NCBI GenBank assembly: GCA_040757335.1
Contig: JBFLXB010000022.1
Coordinates: 1-60,089 of the forward strand
DNA from: Nitrospirota bacterium
GTDB lineage: Bacteria > Nitrospirota > Nitrospiria > 2-01-FULL-66-17
Direction: 5' to 3'
Length of the DNA stretch: 60,089 nucleotides
In this document: positions 7,844 through 44,089 of the stretch, piece after piece
How the letters are laid out: each line of letters begins with the position of its first letter
Position numbering within the stretch: the first letter of the stretch is position 1
Notes under the pieces: model-generated
Told to the model about the DNA's origin: nothing
The model's database searches: none
Seen by the model: only the letters and a program-made list of their open reading frames with translations
Program-made: the position numbers and the translations under genes

Positions 7844-8422
7844 CTACTCGACGGTGATCGGCACCGATTGACTCGAGGTCGCTCCGCTGGCGTCGATGGC
7901 GGTGAGGGTGAGGGTGTGAGTGCCGGGCCGAAGGAGTCCGGGCGGGACCACGGCATCGGTTCCGGTTCCCAGGGCGCCGTCAAGGCTCGACGTCCACGCC
8001 AGGGCCGCGTCATCCGTGATGACACCTTCCTCCGGGTCCTGGACGCCCGCGGACAGCACGAGCGGCGCGCGAATCGACACGGTTTGGCCCTGCCGCGGGC
8101 TGTGGATCACCACGCTGGGTGGCTTGGGTGAGACCAGGACCCCGGTCAGTCGGTCGGACGTGGTGTAGAAGCCGTCATTGACCAGGATTTCGAGCACGCC
8201 CGCCGTGCTCCCGGGGAGGGCATCCGCGGAAGCCAACTGGTAGTCTTCGCGGCCTGCCACATCCAGCGTAATGACGTGCCAGGTTGAGCCGTCCGGGCTG
8301 TAACGAAGGGTGTACGTGAGAAAATCGTCATCTGCATCGCGGCCCGTCCAAGTGACCACGGTGCCGGCTTCGAGGCGTGACTCCGGCAGCGCGGAAAGCG
8401 AGACCGCTGGAGCGTTGGCCGT
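7844..8422 (-). pseudogene. C-terminal fragment of an Ig-like-repeat surface protein
   Basis: About 190 residues resemble two bacterial Ig/cadherin-like modules: GTVVTWTGRDADDDFLTYTL with STWHVITLDV, then VVIHSPRQGQTVSIRAPLVL ending in SGATSSQSVPITVE. Such modules end large secreted or surface proteins. There is no start codon or signal peptide of its own. The frame is fused upstream to a SIR2-like N-terminus at about 8422. It must therefore be the 3' remnant of a larger gene brought next to the restriction-modification locus by a deletion, or joined in assembly. Confidence 0.6.
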
Positions 8423-8572
8423 GGGACTCATCAGCAGGCCATATTGTTTCAGAAAGACTTCGCTCTCTGAATTCTCCTCGATGTTTGCTAATTCAGCATG
8501 CGTTGCTCCCGCCCCAAACAGATACACTACCTTCTGCGGTGCCTCGGGATGTGAGGTTGCGCCTTTCGTCAT
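8423..8572 (-). pseudogene. N-terminal fragment of a SIR2-like protein
   Basis: The first ~50 residues of the 242-residue frame contain KVVYLFGAGATHAELAN, the glycine-rich nucleotide-binding start typical of SIR2-like proteins found beside restriction-modification and defence genes. The frame then jumps into an unrelated Ig-like segment (VFLKQYGLLMS then PTANAPAV). SIR2-like effectors usually deplete NAD when triggered by phage, and only the first strand-helix of the fold remains here. It starts 50 nt downstream of the methyltransferase stop, so it was the third gene of that operon. Assignment to SIR2 rests on this short motif alone. Confidence 0.5.
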
Positions 8573-8621: not shown

Positions 8622-9557
8622 CTACAGACTCACCCTCGCGCCGCGCCGCCGTCCAGACTTTCGATACCTCGGCACGCTTTCGTGGGCCTGAGACCCTTGG
8701 TATCCAAGATCTTCTGCCGCCTCGTATTGAACCCTCACATCGCCAAACAGCGAGTGATTCTCCTTCTCAATCCGCTGCCGCGCCTGCTCGACGTACGCCG
8801 GGTCAATCTCGACGCCGATGCTGTTCCTCCCGGTCTTGATCGCTGCGACCATGGTCGTCCCCGTCCCGCAGAACGGGTCCAGCACGGTATCGCCGGTGAA
8901 CGAGAACATTCGCACTAGCCGGTAAGCCAATTCGTAGGGAAACGGCGCTGGATGCTCCCGGGTTGATGCGCCTGTCAGGGTCCAGATTTGCTGGAACCAT
9001 GCGTCGAATTCCTCCTTCTTCATCTTGCTGTCCCGGCGCTGTGCTTGCGTGGGTTTGCGGTATCCGCCGGGTTTGCGTTGCATCAGGATAAATTCGATGT
9101 CGTTCTTAATGATAGCGTTGGGTTCGTAGGGCTTGCCCAAGAACTTGGAGCCGTTTTCCACCTCGTACGAAGCGTTCGCGATCTTGTGCCAGATGATCGG
9201 GTTGAGATTGTCGAACCCGAGGCGGCGGCAGATCACGGCAATGTCAGCGTGCAGTGGGACGACGACATGGCGGCCGTTCGCCCGTCGTGAGAGGCATACG
9301 TCGCCCACCACGCACACGAGCCGGCCACCGGGTACCAGAATGCGCAGGGACTCCTTCCACACGCGCTCCAGTTGCGCGAGGAACACTTCGTAATCCGCGA
9401 CGTGGCCGAGTTGGTCCGGGTGTTGACGGTACTCCTTGAGCGTCCAGTACGGCGGAGAGGTGACGACCAGATGGACGGATTCGTTCGGGATGAACGACAG
9501 GTCGCGGGCGTCGCCTTGGATCAAACGGTGCACGGTTTTGAGCGGTTGATGGGTCAT
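8622..9557 (-). CDS. DNA methyltransferase (beta class, N4-cytosine or N6-adenine)
   Basis: Transfers a methyl group from AdoMet to DNA bases. Motif IV TSPPYW lies near residue 35 and the AdoMet motif DPFCGTGTT near 230. This motif order, with the target-recognition region between them, defines the beta class. The SPPYW form is most common in N4-cytosine enzymes. The C-terminus after GVEIDPAYVEQARQRI is variable and basic. At 311 residues the length is normal. Its ATG overlaps the stop of the upstream nuclease gene by the ATGA arrangement, so the two are translationally coupled as a type II restriction-modification pair. GC is lower than in the surrounding core genes, consistent with acquisition. 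Confidence 0.88.
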   Translation of the reverse strand: MTHQPLKTVHRLIQGDARDLSFIPNESVHLVVTSPPYWTLKEYRQHPDQLGHVADYEVFLAQLERVWKESLRILVPGGRLVCVVGDVCLSRRANGRHVVVPLHADIAVICRRLGFDNLNPIIWHKIANASYEVENGSKFLGKPYEPNAIIKNDIEFILMQRKPGGYRKPTQAQRRDSKMKKEEFDAWFQQIWTLTGASTREHPAPFPYELAYRLVRMFSFTGDTVLDPFCGTGTTMVAAIKTGRNSIGVEIDPAYVEQARQRIEKENHSLFGDVRVQYEAAEDLGYQGSQAHESVPRYRKSGRRRGARVSL

Positions 9558-10372
9558 CGCGCCATTTCAAACTGGCCGAGCAACATGCGGGCGGCGTTCT
9601 CGATCGAATCGTCTGATTCGGACGCGAAGAATATGCCGTTGATGTGTTTTGACCGCAAGCGGTTCTGAATATTGATGTGCTCGTCAATGAATGGATAATA
9701 AATGACCGCGGCAAACTTCGCGCCTTTGAACGCCTGCTTGAACTTTGCCGCTTTGTTGACGATCTCGTCGCAGCGTTTGTGGATGTCCCGCCGCGCTTCG
9801 ATTCGTTTCACGTCGATCCCGAGTCGGATCGGGCCGGTCGCGGGCGCCGCAGCGTCCAGTTCGAACTCCTCTTTCTGGACCGCGAATTTCCGCTTCTTGA
9901 ACGCTACGGTTCCGAAGCGGTTCAGCGCCTCCACGATTCCACGCTCCCAGCGTCCTTTGCCTTTGCGAATCTCCTTGTCCACGAACGCGACGCGGTCGAC
10001 GTTGACGATTGACGGAATCTCCAAGTACGGCGGGAGGAACGGCTTGAGATAGCCTGCGATCGCGGTCGCATGGTCCGGAGACAGCCGCGGGCTGTAGGTG
10101 TCCACGTTTTTGATCTGCAGATCGCGCTCAATGGCCCGGCCCGCGATGTTGCACGCGGTGAGGAGTGGTTTCAACACGACGGGGTGGGTGCGAATGGCGT
10201 TCGCAAGATCCATCACCCCCACGTTGGCGAAGACAATGACGTCGACCGGGCGGGTTTCAAGAAAACCTGCGAACGCTTCTTTGAGCGCCGCCGCAACGTC
10301 CTGCTGACGGCTTTGGACCTCTGTGTCGATGCGGCCGATGTAATCGGCGTGGGTGCCATATCCGTCCGGCAT
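9554..10372 (-). CDS. Probable type II restriction endonuclease partner
   Basis: A 272-residue protein coupled by a 4-nt overlap to the methyltransferase. A C-terminal segment reads IRLGIDVKRIEARRDIHKRC, compatible with a PD-(D/E)xK nuclease core (D, then a strand with D-x-K); other acidic residues lie upstream (KEEFELD). It ends with IYYPFIDEHINIQNRL. No catalytic residue is proven from sequence. Identification as the nuclease rests mainly on operon position and this core. The ATG at 10372 is preferred over the open frame to 10420, which adds low-complexity sequence. It should cleave the site protected by its partner; the recognition sequence cannot be read. Confidence 0.65.
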   Translation of the reverse strand: MPDGYGTHADYIGRIDTEVQSRQQDVAAALKEAFAGFLETRPVDVIVFANVGVMDLANAIRTHPVVLKPLLTACNIAGRAIERDLQIKNVDTYSPRLSPDHATAIAGYLKPFLPPYLEIPSIVNVDRVAFVDKEIRKGKGRWERGIVEALNRFGTVAFKKRKFAVQKEEFELDAAAPATGPIRLGIDVKRIEARRDIHKRCDEIVNKAAKFKQAFKGAKFAAVIYYPFIDEHINIQNRLRSKHINGIFFASESDDSIENAARMLLGQFEMAR

Positions 10373-10469
10373 TCGAGGTCTCGACCCCGATCCTTGGTGA
10401 GTCAGGCGCCACCGTAACACAAGGCTGTGACGTCGTTCAAGCAGGGAGACCGGCGCGTGCTGTTTCCGA

Positions 10470-40799: not shown

Positions 40800-42635
40800 C
40801 TATTTGAGATTCTCCTCGGTATAGAGCGACAGCTCGATCATACGCTCCAGCAACTGCTGGGGGGAGTGGCCGGGGAAGTTCTTCAGGACCAGTTCCTTGG
40901 CGAAAAGCCGGGCGATGTATCGGAGCTTCAGCGCGCGCGAGCGCGCGCAGTACACGAAGTCGCGGTGGCCGTTGTTGATGACAATGACGTTCTGCAGGGC
41001 GTCGTAGCGCGAACGCCACAGCTCGCCCGGCGCGCGCTGGAAGGTGTAGCCCGGGAGCCCCTGTTTGGTCGAGGCCGGCTCCTTGGTTTCGGGTACGAGC
41101 TGCTCCGTGACCGTGACCAATCCCTCGGCCGTGCAGACGACCTCGCCCTGAGTCACCGCGACCTGCAGGCGGGTCAGTCCAGGGTCCGCCGGGGCGTGAA
41201 ACGTGACGATCTCGCCATCGGCGTTCTCGATGCGCCCCTGGCCTTCGGCGATCGTCCAGCGGCACGAGAGATTCTCCTCGACCGATCTGCGAGCGCGGTC
41301 GCGCGCCACTGCGCGCAGCGTGCGCGATTGGTTCACGGGCAGCACGCAGGAGGTCGGCGCGATCCGCACGCTGAAGAGCGGGCCGGCGTATTCGAAGAAC
41401 TGCTTTTGTCCGTCCCCCGTCGTGGCGTCGCCGACCGCGACATCGTCGACCTCCTCTGTGATCACGGCGCCTTCTACCACGTCGGGCGGGCGACGGGGGC
41501 CCGCCGCGTTCCGCGTCCCGACGTCGAACCAGTCGTATTCCTCCGCCGGCAAGGCCATCAACGCCTCCTGGAACGCACGCTGGATGGTGCGCAGCACGTC
41601 GCGGCTGGCGCGTTCCTCTTCCGCGCGGCGTTGTTCCTCGATGAGCTCCGACACCCGCGCCGCGACCGGCGCCAACGCCGAGCAGAACGCCTCGTATTCG
41701 GCGTCCTGGATGATGCCGCTGCGCGTGCCCGGCGTGAGATTGAGCGTCGGCGCATCCACGATGCCCTGAAGGAACCCTGCGTTCCACGGCGCGCCGCGGA
41801 ACGCATCGAGCTCCGCGATGTCCGCCAGCACGCGCGTGCCGGAGCGATACAGCCCCACGCGGTTCTCAGGGTCCGGCACGGAGAGGTACAGCTCAAGGTA
41901 CACCTCGCCGCGCGGGATCGCAGGGCGCGGCAGTTCGTGCAGCAACCGGCCGGAGAAGCGCCGCGGCTCGACCTGGTACTCGCGGCGCGCCTGGCGGTCG
42001 ATGATCGTGACCTTCACGCCCGACTGGCGGATGCGGTCTCGCAGTTCCGAGGCGAGATACCACTGGATCTTCTCCCCGCTGAACTGGCGGATGCCGGGCA
42101 GCAGCGGCTTGATCTTGAGCTCCGTGCCCTTGTGCGGAAAGAGCGTGTGCCGCGGCATCACCGTGTAATTCGGATCGCCCTTGCGCATGCGCATTTGGTG
42201 GGCCCTTCCGTCCGCGCTGGTCGAGGTTAGCGCCAGCTCCTCGCCCACCGTCCAGAAGCTCAAGAGCCCGATACCGAACTCGCCCTGGATGCCTTGCGCG
42301 CCCTGGGCCTTGAGCCGGCGTTTGATCGAGTCACAGATGTGCGTCGCCACGTAGCGGAAGTCGGGCAGCCCCTGCTCGTCGCGCGGAATGCCGTCGCCGT
42401 CGTCGCTGATCGCAAGATAGTGCTCGCCGTGATCCCGGCCGCGCGTGATGGTGACGCGCCCGGCGCGGGCGTCGATGCTGTTCTCGACGAACTCGGCTAC
42501 CGCCTTCAAGGGGTTGCTCTGAGACAGCGCGATGATGGTGATGGCGTTCCAGTCGTCGCCGATCCGGAGCCGCCCGGAGGCCCCCGGGCGCCTCTGCCGT
42601 TTTGCTAGGGTCACAACGGGGCGATCATAACGCAT
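40800..42635 (-). CDS. GHKL-superfamily ATPase of unknown role
   Basis: A 611-residue protein with an N-terminal Hsp90/MutL/histidine-kinase type ATP-binding domain. It shows the N-box AVAEFVENSIDAR near residue 45, G1 box SDDGDGIPRDE near 75, and G2 box GEFGIGLLSFWTVGEE near 110. An S5-like second domain follows (about 180-330), then a helical linker, an Ig-like region (about 405-520) and a conserved C-terminus (NVIVINNGHRDFVYC, then YIARLFAKELVLKNFPG). No kinase, phosphoacceptor or MutL motif was recognised. The ATG at 42635 precedes the first conserved segment; the frame upstream is not protein-like. It is divergent from the phosphoribosyltransferase/SLOG pair and may belong to the same accessory module. 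Confidence 0.8.
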   Translation of the reverse strand: MRYDRPVVTLAKRQRRPGASGRLRIGDDWNAITIIALSQSNPLKAVAEFVENSIDARAGRVTITRGRDHGEHYLAISDDGDGIPRDEQGLPDFRYVATHICDSIKRRLKAQGAQGIQGEFGIGLLSFWTVGEELALTSTSADGRAHQMRMRKGDPNYTVMPRHTLFPHKGTELKIKPLLPGIRQFSGEKIQWYLASELRDRIRQSGVKVTIIDRQARREYQVEPRRFSGRLLHELPRPAIPRGEVYLELYLSVPDPENRVGLYRSGTRVLADIAELDAFRGAPWNAGFLQGIVDAPTLNLTPGTRSGIIQDAEYEAFCSALAPVAARVSELIEEQRRAEEERASRDVLRTIQRAFQEALMALPAEEYDWFDVGTRNAAGPRRPPDVVEGAVITEEVDDVAVGDATTGDGQKQFFEYAGPLFSVRIAPTSCVLPVNQSRTLRAVARDRARRSVEENLSCRWTIAEGQGRIENADGEIVTFHAPADPGLTRLQVAVTQGEVVCTAEGLVTVTEQLVPETKEPASTKQGLPGYTFQRAPGELWRSRYDALQNVIVINNGHRDFVYCARSRALKLRYIARLFAKELVLKNFPGHSPQQLLERMIELSLYTEENLK

Positions 42636-42728
42636 CCATGCTGGCCATCGCCAAGGCCTGTTTGGGAATGGGGACGGAATTCTTTTTCTGTTTAAGCATG
42701 GGTGTATAGTATGCCGACCCAGCAGCAA

Positions 42729-42757
42729 TTGACTTTCTTGGCAGGCGGGCATATACG
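42729..42757 (+). promoter_or_regulatory. Sigma70-like promoter for the phosphoribosyltransferase/SLOG pair
   Basis: -35 TTGACT (42729-42734), 17-nt spacer and -10 TATACG (42752-42757). Transcription would begin near 42764, ahead of the GTG at 42788. Confidence 0.5.
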
Positions 42758-42787
42758 TGGGGCGCTGTCGTACCCAGTGACGGCAGG

Positions 42788-43387
42788 GTGCCGCTTGGGC
42801 ACAACGTGGCAAAGATAAACCCGAAACAACTACATGGACCTTGGGCGACCGGTTATGCGCTTGATATCCACTCTACGGGTAGCGAGTTTATCGGCTACGA
42901 CGAGTACGGCCATGAGCAATTCGACACGAAACGTACAGAGATTGGCGAACTTCTTTACCGTGTAAAATACCAAGGCGACGATGCCGCTCTCGACGAATTG
43001 GTCAGCACGATGGCGGATTTCATTAGAGTGAAACGAAAGGCCGTGGACATGATTGTCCCTGTCCCGCCTACTCGTGCCCGCCGGGTGCAGCCTCTTTTCA
43101 AGATCGCGGACGCCCTCGGAGCAAAGATCAAAACGCCGGTTGTTCGGAATGCGGTGAAGAAGACTGGCGGATCTGAGCTCAAGAATCTCCACAGCTACGA
43201 AGAAAGAAGGCAGGCGCTGGAACACGTCATCATGGCCGACTCGAAATTGGTAACAGGCAAGCGCATCCTTCTACTGGATGATCTGGTTCGCTCGGGAGCG
43301 ACGATCAACGCCGTGGCAGAACAACTCACATCCGCTGGGGCAACCGCGGTTCACGTCTTGGCGATTACGCAAACGAGGCGACAATGA
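42788..43387 (+). CDS. ComF-like phosphoribosyltransferase
   Basis: A 199-residue type I phosphoribosyltransferase. The PRPP-binding loop is RILLLDDLVRSGATINAVA (about 157-175), with an upstream DMIVPVPPTRARRVQP segment as in ComF relatives. The N-terminal ~75 residues (WATGYALDIHSTGSEFIGYD, RTEIGELLYRVKYQGDD) are specific to this subgroup. Unlike ComF it has no zinc ribbon. The substrate base is unknown. The start is GTG 42788, with GTG 42806 as an alternative. It overlaps the next gene by 4 nt (ATGA). GC is clearly lower than in neighbours, suggesting transfer. It probably works with the SLOG-like partner in nucleotide metabolism or signalling. Confidence 0.82.
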   Translation: MPLGHNVAKINPKQLHGPWATGYALDIHSTGSEFIGYDEYGHEQFDTKRTEIGELLYRVKYQGDDAALDELVSTMADFIRVKRKAVDMIVPVPPTRARRVQPLFKIADALGAKIKTPVVRNAVKKTGGSELKNLHSYEERRQALEHVIMADSKLVTGKRILLLDDLVRSGATINAVAEQLTSAGATAVHVLAITQTRRQ

Positions 43388-43935
43388 AGAGCGTTTTTGC
43401 TGGTGGGTCGCGGAAAGTGACCCGCCTGAACGCCGAGATTCGGAAGCGACTCGATCAGATCATCGCGAAACACTTGAGCGTGTTGGTAGGTGACGCCAAC
43501 GGCGCAGATAAGGCCATCCAGAAGTATTTGAGTGACCGCCAATACGACAAGGTTGTCGTATTTTGCACAGCCGACGCGTGCAGAAACAATCTTGGTGAGT
43601 GGGCCGTGCGATCCGTAGCGCCGCCGCACGAAACACGGGATTTTGCCTTCTTCACGGCCAAAGACGCAGCGATGGCACGCGAAGCGGAGTATGGGTTCAT
43701 GCTGTGGGACGGCGAGAGCGCGGGAACGATTGTCAACGTGGCACGACTCGTCGCAGCGGGAAAACCGGTCGTGATCTACTTATCGCCTCGGAAGATATTC
43801 GTCACGCTCAAGTCGCGCCAGGAACTCGATGTCCTCTTGCACGAGATTCCCGCCGCTGCCGCAGCACGAGTCAAGCGATATATCGCAGAGCACGCCCGTG
43901 AGTTCGAGCAACAGAGCATGTTCGGTGCCGCGTGA
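43384..43935 (+). CDS. SLOG-like nucleotide-binding Rossmann protein
   Basis: A 183-residue protein starting MKSVFAGGSRKVTRLNAEI, with LVGDANGADKAIQKYLSD, then EYGFMLWDGESAGTIVNVAR and GKPVVIYLSPRK. These are the glycine-rich, G-D-x-x-G-A-D and late G-x-S/T-x-G-T features of SLOG (YspA/DprA-like) domains that bind nucleotides or cut nucleoside derivatives. It is translationally coupled to the phosphoribosyltransferase. The pair is consistent with enzymes that make and hydrolyse, or sense, a nucleotide. GC is low compared with flanking genes. The exact reaction is unknown. Confidence 0.75.
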   Translation: MKSVFAGGSRKVTRLNAEIRKRLDQIIAKHLSVLVGDANGADKAIQKYLSDRQYDKVVVFCTADACRNNLGEWAVRSVAPPHETRDFAFFTAKDAAMAREAEYGFMLWDGESAGTIVNVARLVAAGKPVVIYLSPRKIFVTLKSRQELDVLLHEIPAAAAARVKRYIAEHAREFEQQSMFGAA

Positions 43936-43977
43936 CCCGTTACTCAACCCCTCGGTTCTTGTGGCCTGGCTAAAGAT

Positions 43978-44021
43978 TTGTCGGGTAGACCCGGGTGGCA
44001 ACACCCGGGTCTACCCGACAA
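43978..44021. repeat. Perfect 20-bp-stem hairpin element
   Basis: TTGTCGGGTAGACCCGGGTG (43978-43997) and its exact complement (44002-44021) surround the loop GCAA. Outside it, CTAAAG and CTTTAG (43970-43975 and 44023-44028) extend the pairing after a small mismatch. It lies about 40 bp after the SLOG-like gene. It may act as a terminator, but its perfect symmetry suggests a mobile palindromic element. Confidence 0.7.
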
Positions 44022-44089
44022 CCTTTAGAAACGAGGAAGTGTGCGGCAAAGGGGGGTGTTGGAGCCCGGACTGGCCCGTTGCGATCCGC

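What the first reader, a model, noticed from the sequence alone, without database searches (positions are those of the whole stretch)
40800..43935. Candidate new accessory module: GHKL ATPase diverging from a ComF-like phosphoribosyltransferase and a SLOG-like protein
The phosphoribosyltransferase and SLOG-like genes are coupled by a 4-nt overlap, have lower GC than neighbours and carry their own promoter. They diverge from a 611-residue GHKL ATPase with an Ig-like middle and unknown C-terminus. SLOG domains are known to bind or process nucleotide ligands and have been proposed in conflict systems; GHKL ATPases are also frequent in defence islands. A nucleotide-signal-making or -sensing pair plus an ATPase effector would be a coherent undescribed system.
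Basis: partly seen in the sequence, partly recalled or inferred. Interest (0 to 1): 0.6.

Follow-up and report, generated by a model that had tools for sequence, protein, structure and literature searches.

The report
Phosphoribosyltransferase–SLOG toxin–antitoxin-like pair
Two of the three genes form a small, widely shared pair that looks like a toxin and its antidote, close in shape to a known anti-phage pair called ShosTA, while the third gene (a GHKL ATPase) is an unrelated neighbour.

Summary
All three genes are real, but they are not one three-gene system. The phosphoribosyltransferase (PRTase, 42806-43387 +) and SLOG gene (43384-43935 +, ATGA overlap) form a conserved two-gene module. 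In 64 genome and viral loci with an intact pair, 50 keep the exact 4-nt overlap and all have PRTase first. The GHKL ATPase was found near none of 88 SLOG loci. Among 396 genomes of the phylum, GHKL (6 genomes) and the pair (5) share only this genome.

The pair is best read as a PRTase-toxin/SLOG-antitoxin module of the ShosTA/PsyrTA/RqlHI kind:
- Predicted structures of both proteins (pLDDT 94) each have a ShosTA component as top PDB match: ShosA 8zva for SLOG, ShosT 8zvd/8zvc for PRTase.
- PADLOC's best hit for the PRTase is PsyrT (6e-22).
- Some SLOG relatives carry a C-terminal "addiction module antidote" HTH domain (PF21716).
- SLOG survives beside decayed PRTases; no intact PRTase without SLOG was found.
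- Pairs sit on plasmids beside rep/par genes, in viral contigs, and once beside CBASS.

It differs from ShosTA: opposite gene order, minimal 183-aa SLOG, no PADLOC antitoxin match. Verdict: new variant of a known kind. Activity is untested.

The parts
42806..43387 (+). PRTase gene, putative toxin (193 aa from GTG 42806; the mechanical ORF starts at 42788)
   Evidence: Pfam PF00156 8.6e-8, TIGR00201 6.6e-17, PADLOC PsyrT 6.4e-22 and ShosT 8.2e-9; AlphaFold pLDDT 94.3, top PDB match ShosT 8zvd
43268..43303 (+). PRPP-binding motif LLLDDLVRSGAT of the PRTase
   Evidence: both aspartates and the G of the motif invariant in 46 aligned homologues; second D and G invariant in a 63-sequence set
43384..43935 (+). 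SLOG gene, putative antitoxin (183 aa)
   Evidence: AlphaFold pLDDT 94.0; top PDB matches ShosA 8zva (E 1.1e-4, prob 1.00), then DprA; relatives fused to PF21716 addiction-module antidote HTH
43384..43387 (+). ATGA stop/start overlap that couples the two genes
   Evidence: the same -4 overlap in 50 of 64 intact pairs
43489..43521 (+). SLOG loop GDANGADKAIQ
   Evidence: G36 D37 A38 G40 D42 Q46 invariant in 52 homologues
43582..43590 (+). SLOG RNN motif
   Evidence: R67 N68 N69 invariant in 52 homologues
43702..43728 (+). SLOG loop LWDGESAGT
   Evidence: W108 D109 S112 G114 invariant in 52 homologues; profile alignment places it on SGTL of a ShosA (low probability)
43970..44028 (.). near-perfect palindrome downstream of the SLOG gene; possible transcript end or REP-like repeat
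   Evidence: folds at -49 kcal/mol, z -10; two further copies in the genome
40800..42635 (-). GHKL ATPase gene; neighbour, NOT part of the module
   Evidence: no homologue in 88 SLOG loci; stand-alone in five other genomes

Best explanation
The PRTase-SLOG gene pair is a mobile two-gene toxin-antitoxin-like module that works like ShosTA/PsyrTA/RqlHI. (1) Shown: the two genes overlap, are inherited together and co-vary. (2) Inferred: the PRTase is the toxin. It would use its conserved PRPP site to consume or misuse PRPP and nucleobases, disturbing the nucleotide pool and so DNA replication, as reported for ShosT and for the PRTase domain of RqlH. (3) Inferred: the SLOG protein is the antitoxin, holding the PRTase in check by direct binding or through its DprA-like DNA- or nucleotide-binding site. 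In some lineages an added HTH domain probably autoregulates the operon. (4) Inferred: loss of the module (plasmid addiction) or phage interference with the antitoxin, host transcription or DNA frees the toxin. The GHKL ATPase next door is a separate accessory gene that shares the insertion site.
For: Conserved pair: 76 of 88 SLOG loci have the PRTase just upstream on the same strand; 50 of 64 intact pairs have the exact -4 overlap, the rest lie within -1 to +9 nt, and pairwise distances of the two proteins correlate (Mantel r 0.79, 0 of 2000 permutations as high). Structure: among 350,542 PDB chains the top match of the SLOG model is ShosA and of the PRTase model is ShosT. Sequence: PADLOC PsyrT 6.4e-22 and ShosT 8.2e-9. 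Antitoxin mark: seven of seven long SLOG members tested carry PF21716, E 5e-16 to 1e-24, and four of four tested pass TIGR02684. Asymmetric decay: of 81 SLOG loci with room upstream, 64 have an intact PRTase, 13 a truncated, frameshifted or stopped one and 4 none. In the converse direction, the two PRTase-bearing plasmids found without SLOG both have broken PRTases (L157; L159 cut by IS1), and all five subfamily PRTases of 396 phylum genomes and four of four viral ones have SLOG. Context: 98 plasmid records, including positions beside repA, between repC and parAB and beside rep; CBASS operon; SIR2/HNH/nucleotidyltransferase genes; R-M genes; an AIPR/AbiU-like gene; about 20 viral contigs. Conserved PRPP motif. 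Literature on the kind: PMC9122126 (DprA + PRTase protects from T7 and lambda), PMC4670107 (RqlH PRTase toxicity, RqlI antidote), PMC12593503 (summary of the ShosTA mechanism paper).
Against: No toxicity or protection is shown for this pair. At sequence level the PRTase profile scores ComFC proteins (50-80 bits) above a true ShosT (22 bits). The SLOG protein has no PADLOC antitoxin hit, and its profile comparison with ShosA has low probability. The structural matches are distant (TM 0.52-0.57, 13-18% identity). Immediate chromosomal neighbours are mostly ordinary genes, with no demonstrated defence enrichment. Co-variation partly reflects shared descent. The decay asymmetry partly reflects starting most searches from SLOG.
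Confidence: 0.75

Rival explanations
1. Three-gene defence system as proposed by the first reader: the PRTase-SLOG pair makes or senses a nucleotide signal and the GHKL ATPase is the effector.
For: The three genes share one accessory insertion that is absent in the sister genome; both halves are patchily distributed.
Against: No GHKL in 88 SLOG loci. In 396 genomes of the phylum GHKL occurs in 6 and the PRTase-SLOG pair in 5; only the query genome has both. GHKL homologues have no PRTase or SLOG beside them. GC differs: about 64-70% against 54-58%.
Confidence: 0.03
2. Metabolic or salvage pair: a LOG-like phosphoribohydrolase frees a base from a nucleotide and the PRTase puts a base back on PRPP.
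For: Both folds belong to nucleotide enzymes; weak Nuc_deoxyrib_tr hit (E 0.01); a type-II LOG is among the structural matches.
Against: The catalytic PGGxGTxxE motif of LOG (from general knowledge) is not kept: the place reads DGESAGTIVNV with N118 nearly invariant. Plasmid addiction-type positions, the antitoxin HTH fusion and decay of only the PRTase do not fit housekeeping. Presence is patchy, SLOG in 8 of 396 genomes.
Confidence: 0.1
3. DNA-uptake or repair module: a ComFC-DprA-like pair that helps process incoming DNA rather than a toxin and antidote.
For: ComFC and DprA are the competence relatives of the two proteins.
Against: A separate ComF-like PRTase, probably the housekeeping one, is present in the same genome (G000:C4); no competence genes recognised nearby; plasmid, viral-contig and island locations with high turnover; antidote HTH.
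Confidence: 0.08

Closest known systems
ShosTA (PRTase toxin + DprA-type antitoxin)
   Same: Two genes; PRTase with a PRPP site plus a SLOG/DprA-fold partner; best structural match for both proteins (8zvd/8zvc and 8zva); mobile, anti-phage kind.
   Different: A true ShosTA of the same class (L130) has the DprA-type gene first and the PRTase second, with a 305-aa ShosA; here the PRTase is first and the SLOG protein is 183 aa. PADLOC ShosA scores L130 at 7e-94 but the window SLOG not at all; ShosT scores 1e-48 against 8e-9.
PsyrTA / RqlHI (RecQ-like helicase-PRTase fusion toxin + DprA-like antitoxin)
   Same: The window PRTase is closest in PADLOC to the C-terminal PRTase of PsyrT (6.4e-22); toxin gene first; RqlI has a C-terminal HTH (PMC4670107), as some SLOG members here do.
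   Different: No RecQ helicase; the PRTase is a free-standing 193-aa protein; no PsyrA hit for the SLOG protein.
ComFC/GntX family PRTases
   Same: Sequence relatives of the PRTase (TIGR00201 6.6e-17); plasmid members are named 'ComF family protein' in their records.
   Different: Score far below the curated cut-off (62 against 234 bits); own conserved N-terminal region (G-x-W ... H ... R-[ST]-E-x-G-E); regular SLOG partner; this genome has a separate ComF-like gene.
YspA/cpYpsA-type and ThsA-type SLOG proteins
   Same: SLOG fold and loops; weak YAcAr sequence hit; the ThsA SLOG domain is among the weaker fold matches.
   Different: No SIR2 or other effector domain; partner is a PRTase; structure closest to ShosA/DprA.

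Membership tests
ShosTA | toxin matches the ShosT PRTase model at the level of true members | tested here: not met
   8.2e-9 (34 bits) against 9.5e-49 (164 bits) for a true ShosT
ShosTA | antitoxin matches the ShosA (DprA-type) model | tested here: not met
   no ShosA or PsyrA hit at E 0.1; positive control L130 7.1e-94
ShosTA | fold of both proteins as in solved ShosT and ShosA | tested here: met
   top PDB matches 8zvd/8zvc and 8zva, prob 1.00, TM about 0.55
ShosTA | gene order antitoxin then toxin (as in L130) | tested here: not met
   PRTase first in all intact pairs counted; reference order from one ShosTA locus
ShosTA | toxin is toxic alone, partner relieves it, protects from phage | not testable with these tools
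   needs expression and phage assays
PsyrTA/RqlHI | RecQ-like helicase fused to the PRTase | tested here: not met
   193-aa PRTase only; match covers PsyrT residues 537-686 of 689
Toxin-antitoxin modules (general) | two small overlapping co-inherited genes on mobile elements | tested here: met
Toxin-antitoxin modules (general) | antitoxin can persist without toxin, not the reverse | tested here: met
   13 decayed and 4 absent PRTases beside intact SLOG; no intact PRTase without SLOG seen; sample modest and mostly found through SLOG
Toxin-antitoxin modules (general) | DNA-binding autoregulatory antitoxin | tested here: inconclusive
   HTH (PF21716) in the long SLOG members; the 183-aa window SLOG has no such domain
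LOG phosphoribohydrolases | PGGxGTxxE catalytic motif | tested here: not met
   DGESAGTIVNV; N118 nearly invariant; motif definition from general knowledge
ComFC competence PRTase | passes the TIGR00201 cut-off | tested here: not met
   62 bits against 233.55

The most novel reading that the evidence does not exclude
A third, uncatalogued family of PRTase toxin-antitoxin/anti-phage modules, spread over more than ten bacterial phyla, plasmids and viral contigs, in which a minimal ligand-pocket SLOG domain replaces the DprA antitoxin and directly couples nucleotide- or DNA-state sensing to release of a PRPP-consuming toxin.
Probability: 0.4. Interest if true: 0.6.

Novelty: new variant of a known kind. 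Interest (0 to 1): 0.45.

Why it matters
PRTase toxins occur in ShosTA, PsyrTA/RqlHI and some retrons, and the antidotes of the first two are DprA-like proteins. A broad family in which a bare 180-residue SLOG domain takes the antidote's place would show how little of DprA is needed for the antidote function and would give a minimal pair for biochemistry. It is also missed today: databases name the genes 'ComF family protein' and 'hypothetical protein', and PADLOC 2.0.0 has no model that finds the SLOG partner.

Tried and rejected
GHKL as a third member: rejected. Defence-island enrichment: 105 neighbour proteins scanned against PADLOC and Pfam gave a mixed, mostly housekeeping picture with no matched control, so no enrichment is claimed. 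Sigma-70 promoter in the divergent region: none found. GenBank phages (INPHARED): no SLOG hit, although about 20 IMG/VR contigs hold it. PRTase search of viral contigs with the four-sequence alignment found nothing; the 46-sequence one found four, all with SLOG. Direct sequence relation of SLOG to PDB chains: none convincing, hence the fold search. The ShosTA mechanism paper (10.1038/s41467-025-58540-9) and the psyrTA discovery paper are not held, so their content is taken from reviews, other papers and PDB titles.

Full report
WHAT IS THERE. Three genes stand in an accessory stretch between hemL and a VIT1-family gene: a GHKL ATPase (40800-42635, -), a ComF-like PRTase (42806-43387, +) and a SLOG-like gene (43384-43935, +), the last two joined by ATGA. 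The pair is poorer in GC (54-58%) than the GHKL gene and most neighbours. In the sister genome G001 the flanking genes are collinear and about 0.9 kb of unrelated sequence replaces the whole stretch, so all three genes are accessory here.

THE ATPASE DOES NOT BELONG. In 147 relatives no second GHKL homologue was found, and in 396 genomes of the phylum only six have hits at E <= 1e-8 including this genome: four others at 60-71% identity over nearly full length (one with an internal stop), and a fragment in G338. None has a PRTase or SLOG gene beside it, though some of the stretches held are short. Conversely none of 88 loci with the SLOG gene has the GHKL gene within the up to 8 kb held on either side. 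It is a rare stand-alone ATPase of the MutL/Hsp90 type; one homologue lies near an AbiEi-like gene. Its function stays open.

THE PAIR IS A CONSERVED MODULE. A scan of one genome per species with the SLOG alignment gave 139 relatives (80 kept) in Acidobacteria, Nitrospirae, Proteobacteria, Planctomycetes, Chlorobi, Chloroflexi, Myxococcaceae, Rokuibacteriota, Eremiobacterota, Akkermansiaceae and others, plus about 20 viral contigs and 98 plasmid records including Listeria. The PRTase is just upstream in 76 of 88 loci. In 64 intact pairs the spacing is -4 in 50, and -1 to +9 in the rest; the protein distances correlate with r 0.79 (part of this is shared descent). Catalytic and pocket residues are invariant: DD...G of the PRPP loop, and G8 S9, GDAxGxD, RNN, WDxxSxG of SLOG.

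WHAT IT WORKS LIKE. Models of both proteins are confident (pLDDT 94). Searched independently against the PDB, the SLOG model's best match is ShosA (8zva), followed by DprA, and the PRTase model's best matches are ShosT with phosphate and with PRPP-Mg (8zvd, 8zvc). The similarity is distant (TM about 0.55, 14-18% identity), but the coincidence of both partners pointing to the two components of one toxin-antitoxin system is hard to get by chance. PADLOC places the PRTase next to PsyrT (6.4e-22) and ShosT (8.2e-9). In alphaproteobacteria, Xanthomonas and others the SLOG protein is extended by an HTH domain of the family 'addiction module antidote protein' (PF21716/TIGR02684, E down to 3e-25), independent evidence that it is the antidote half. 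Gene decay is one-sided: of 81 SLOG loci with room upstream, 64 have an intact PRTase, 13 a shortened, frameshifted or interrupted one, 4 none, while the two PRTase-bearing plasmids found without SLOG have broken PRTases (one cut by IS1) and all subfamily PRTases in the phylum and viral sets have SLOG. Of the 57 PRTase plasmid records, most were checked against the SLOG hit lists or fetched; a minority of Klebsiella, Enterobacter and Citrobacter records that look alike were not opened one by one. On plasmids the pair sits beside repA, rep or between repC and parAB, elsewhere beside CBASS genes, SIR2/HNH/nucleotidyltransferase genes, R-M genes or an AIPR gene. A scan of neighbours did not show enrichment of defence genes.

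MECHANISM. From the known kind: the RqlH PRTase domain is genotoxic unless RqlI is present, and mutation of its PRPP site largely abolishes this (PMC4670107); a DprA + PRTase pair protects E. coli from T7 and lambda (PMC9122126); ShosT is reported to act as phosphoribosyltransferase and pyrophosphatase that disturbs purine metabolism, with ShosA as DNA-binding antidote (PMC12593503 citing Pu et al. 2025; original not held). By inference the PRTase here spends PRPP/nucleotides when not restrained, and the SLOG protein restrains it. The tight coupling favours a complex. Whether the trigger is phage infection, plasmid loss or DNA damage is unknown.

MEMBERSHIP. It is not filed as ShosTA or PsyrTA. 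The ShosT score is far below that of a true member; ShosA/PsyrA models do not hit the SLOG protein although they hit a true ShosA from the same class (7e-94, control); the gene order is reversed relative to that locus; no helicase is present. It works like them, but is a separate family: a new variant of a known kind. Absence from PADLOC 2.0.0 and NCBIfam was tested; absence from toxin-antitoxin databases and from literature outside the held library was not.

Noticed in passing
window 43970-44028: Near-perfect 59-nt palindrome (-49 kcal/mol, z -10) downstream of the SLOG gene; two more copies in the genome lie about 80 nt from contig ends (C4, C57), suggesting a REP-like repeat that breaks the assembly.
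   Followed up: partly
window 8622-10420 (-): N6/N4 DNA methyltransferase overlapping an unnamed 288-aa protein with no Pfam hit: a likely type II restriction-modification pair about 30 kb from the finding.
   Followed up: partly
window 7844-8572 (-): ORF starting with KVVYLFGAGATHAE and then looking like Ig-type repeats; possibly the remnant of a larger conflict gene beside the methyltransferase; no Pfam hit.
   Followed up: no
L099:4672-5505: PRTase N-terminal region fused in frame to SLOG, lacking the PRTase catalytic part: an internal deletion that removed the putative toxin but kept the antidote.
   Followed up: partly
L125:5634-7274, L127:1933-3737: GHKL ATPase homologues in related genomes lie next to small accessory genes, one of them AbiEi-like; the ATPase may be a separate conflict gene.
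   Followed up: partly
L130:1495-3016: A genuine ShosTA (ShosA 7e-94, ShosT 1e-48) in another genome of the class, with order antitoxin then toxin.
   Followed up: yes
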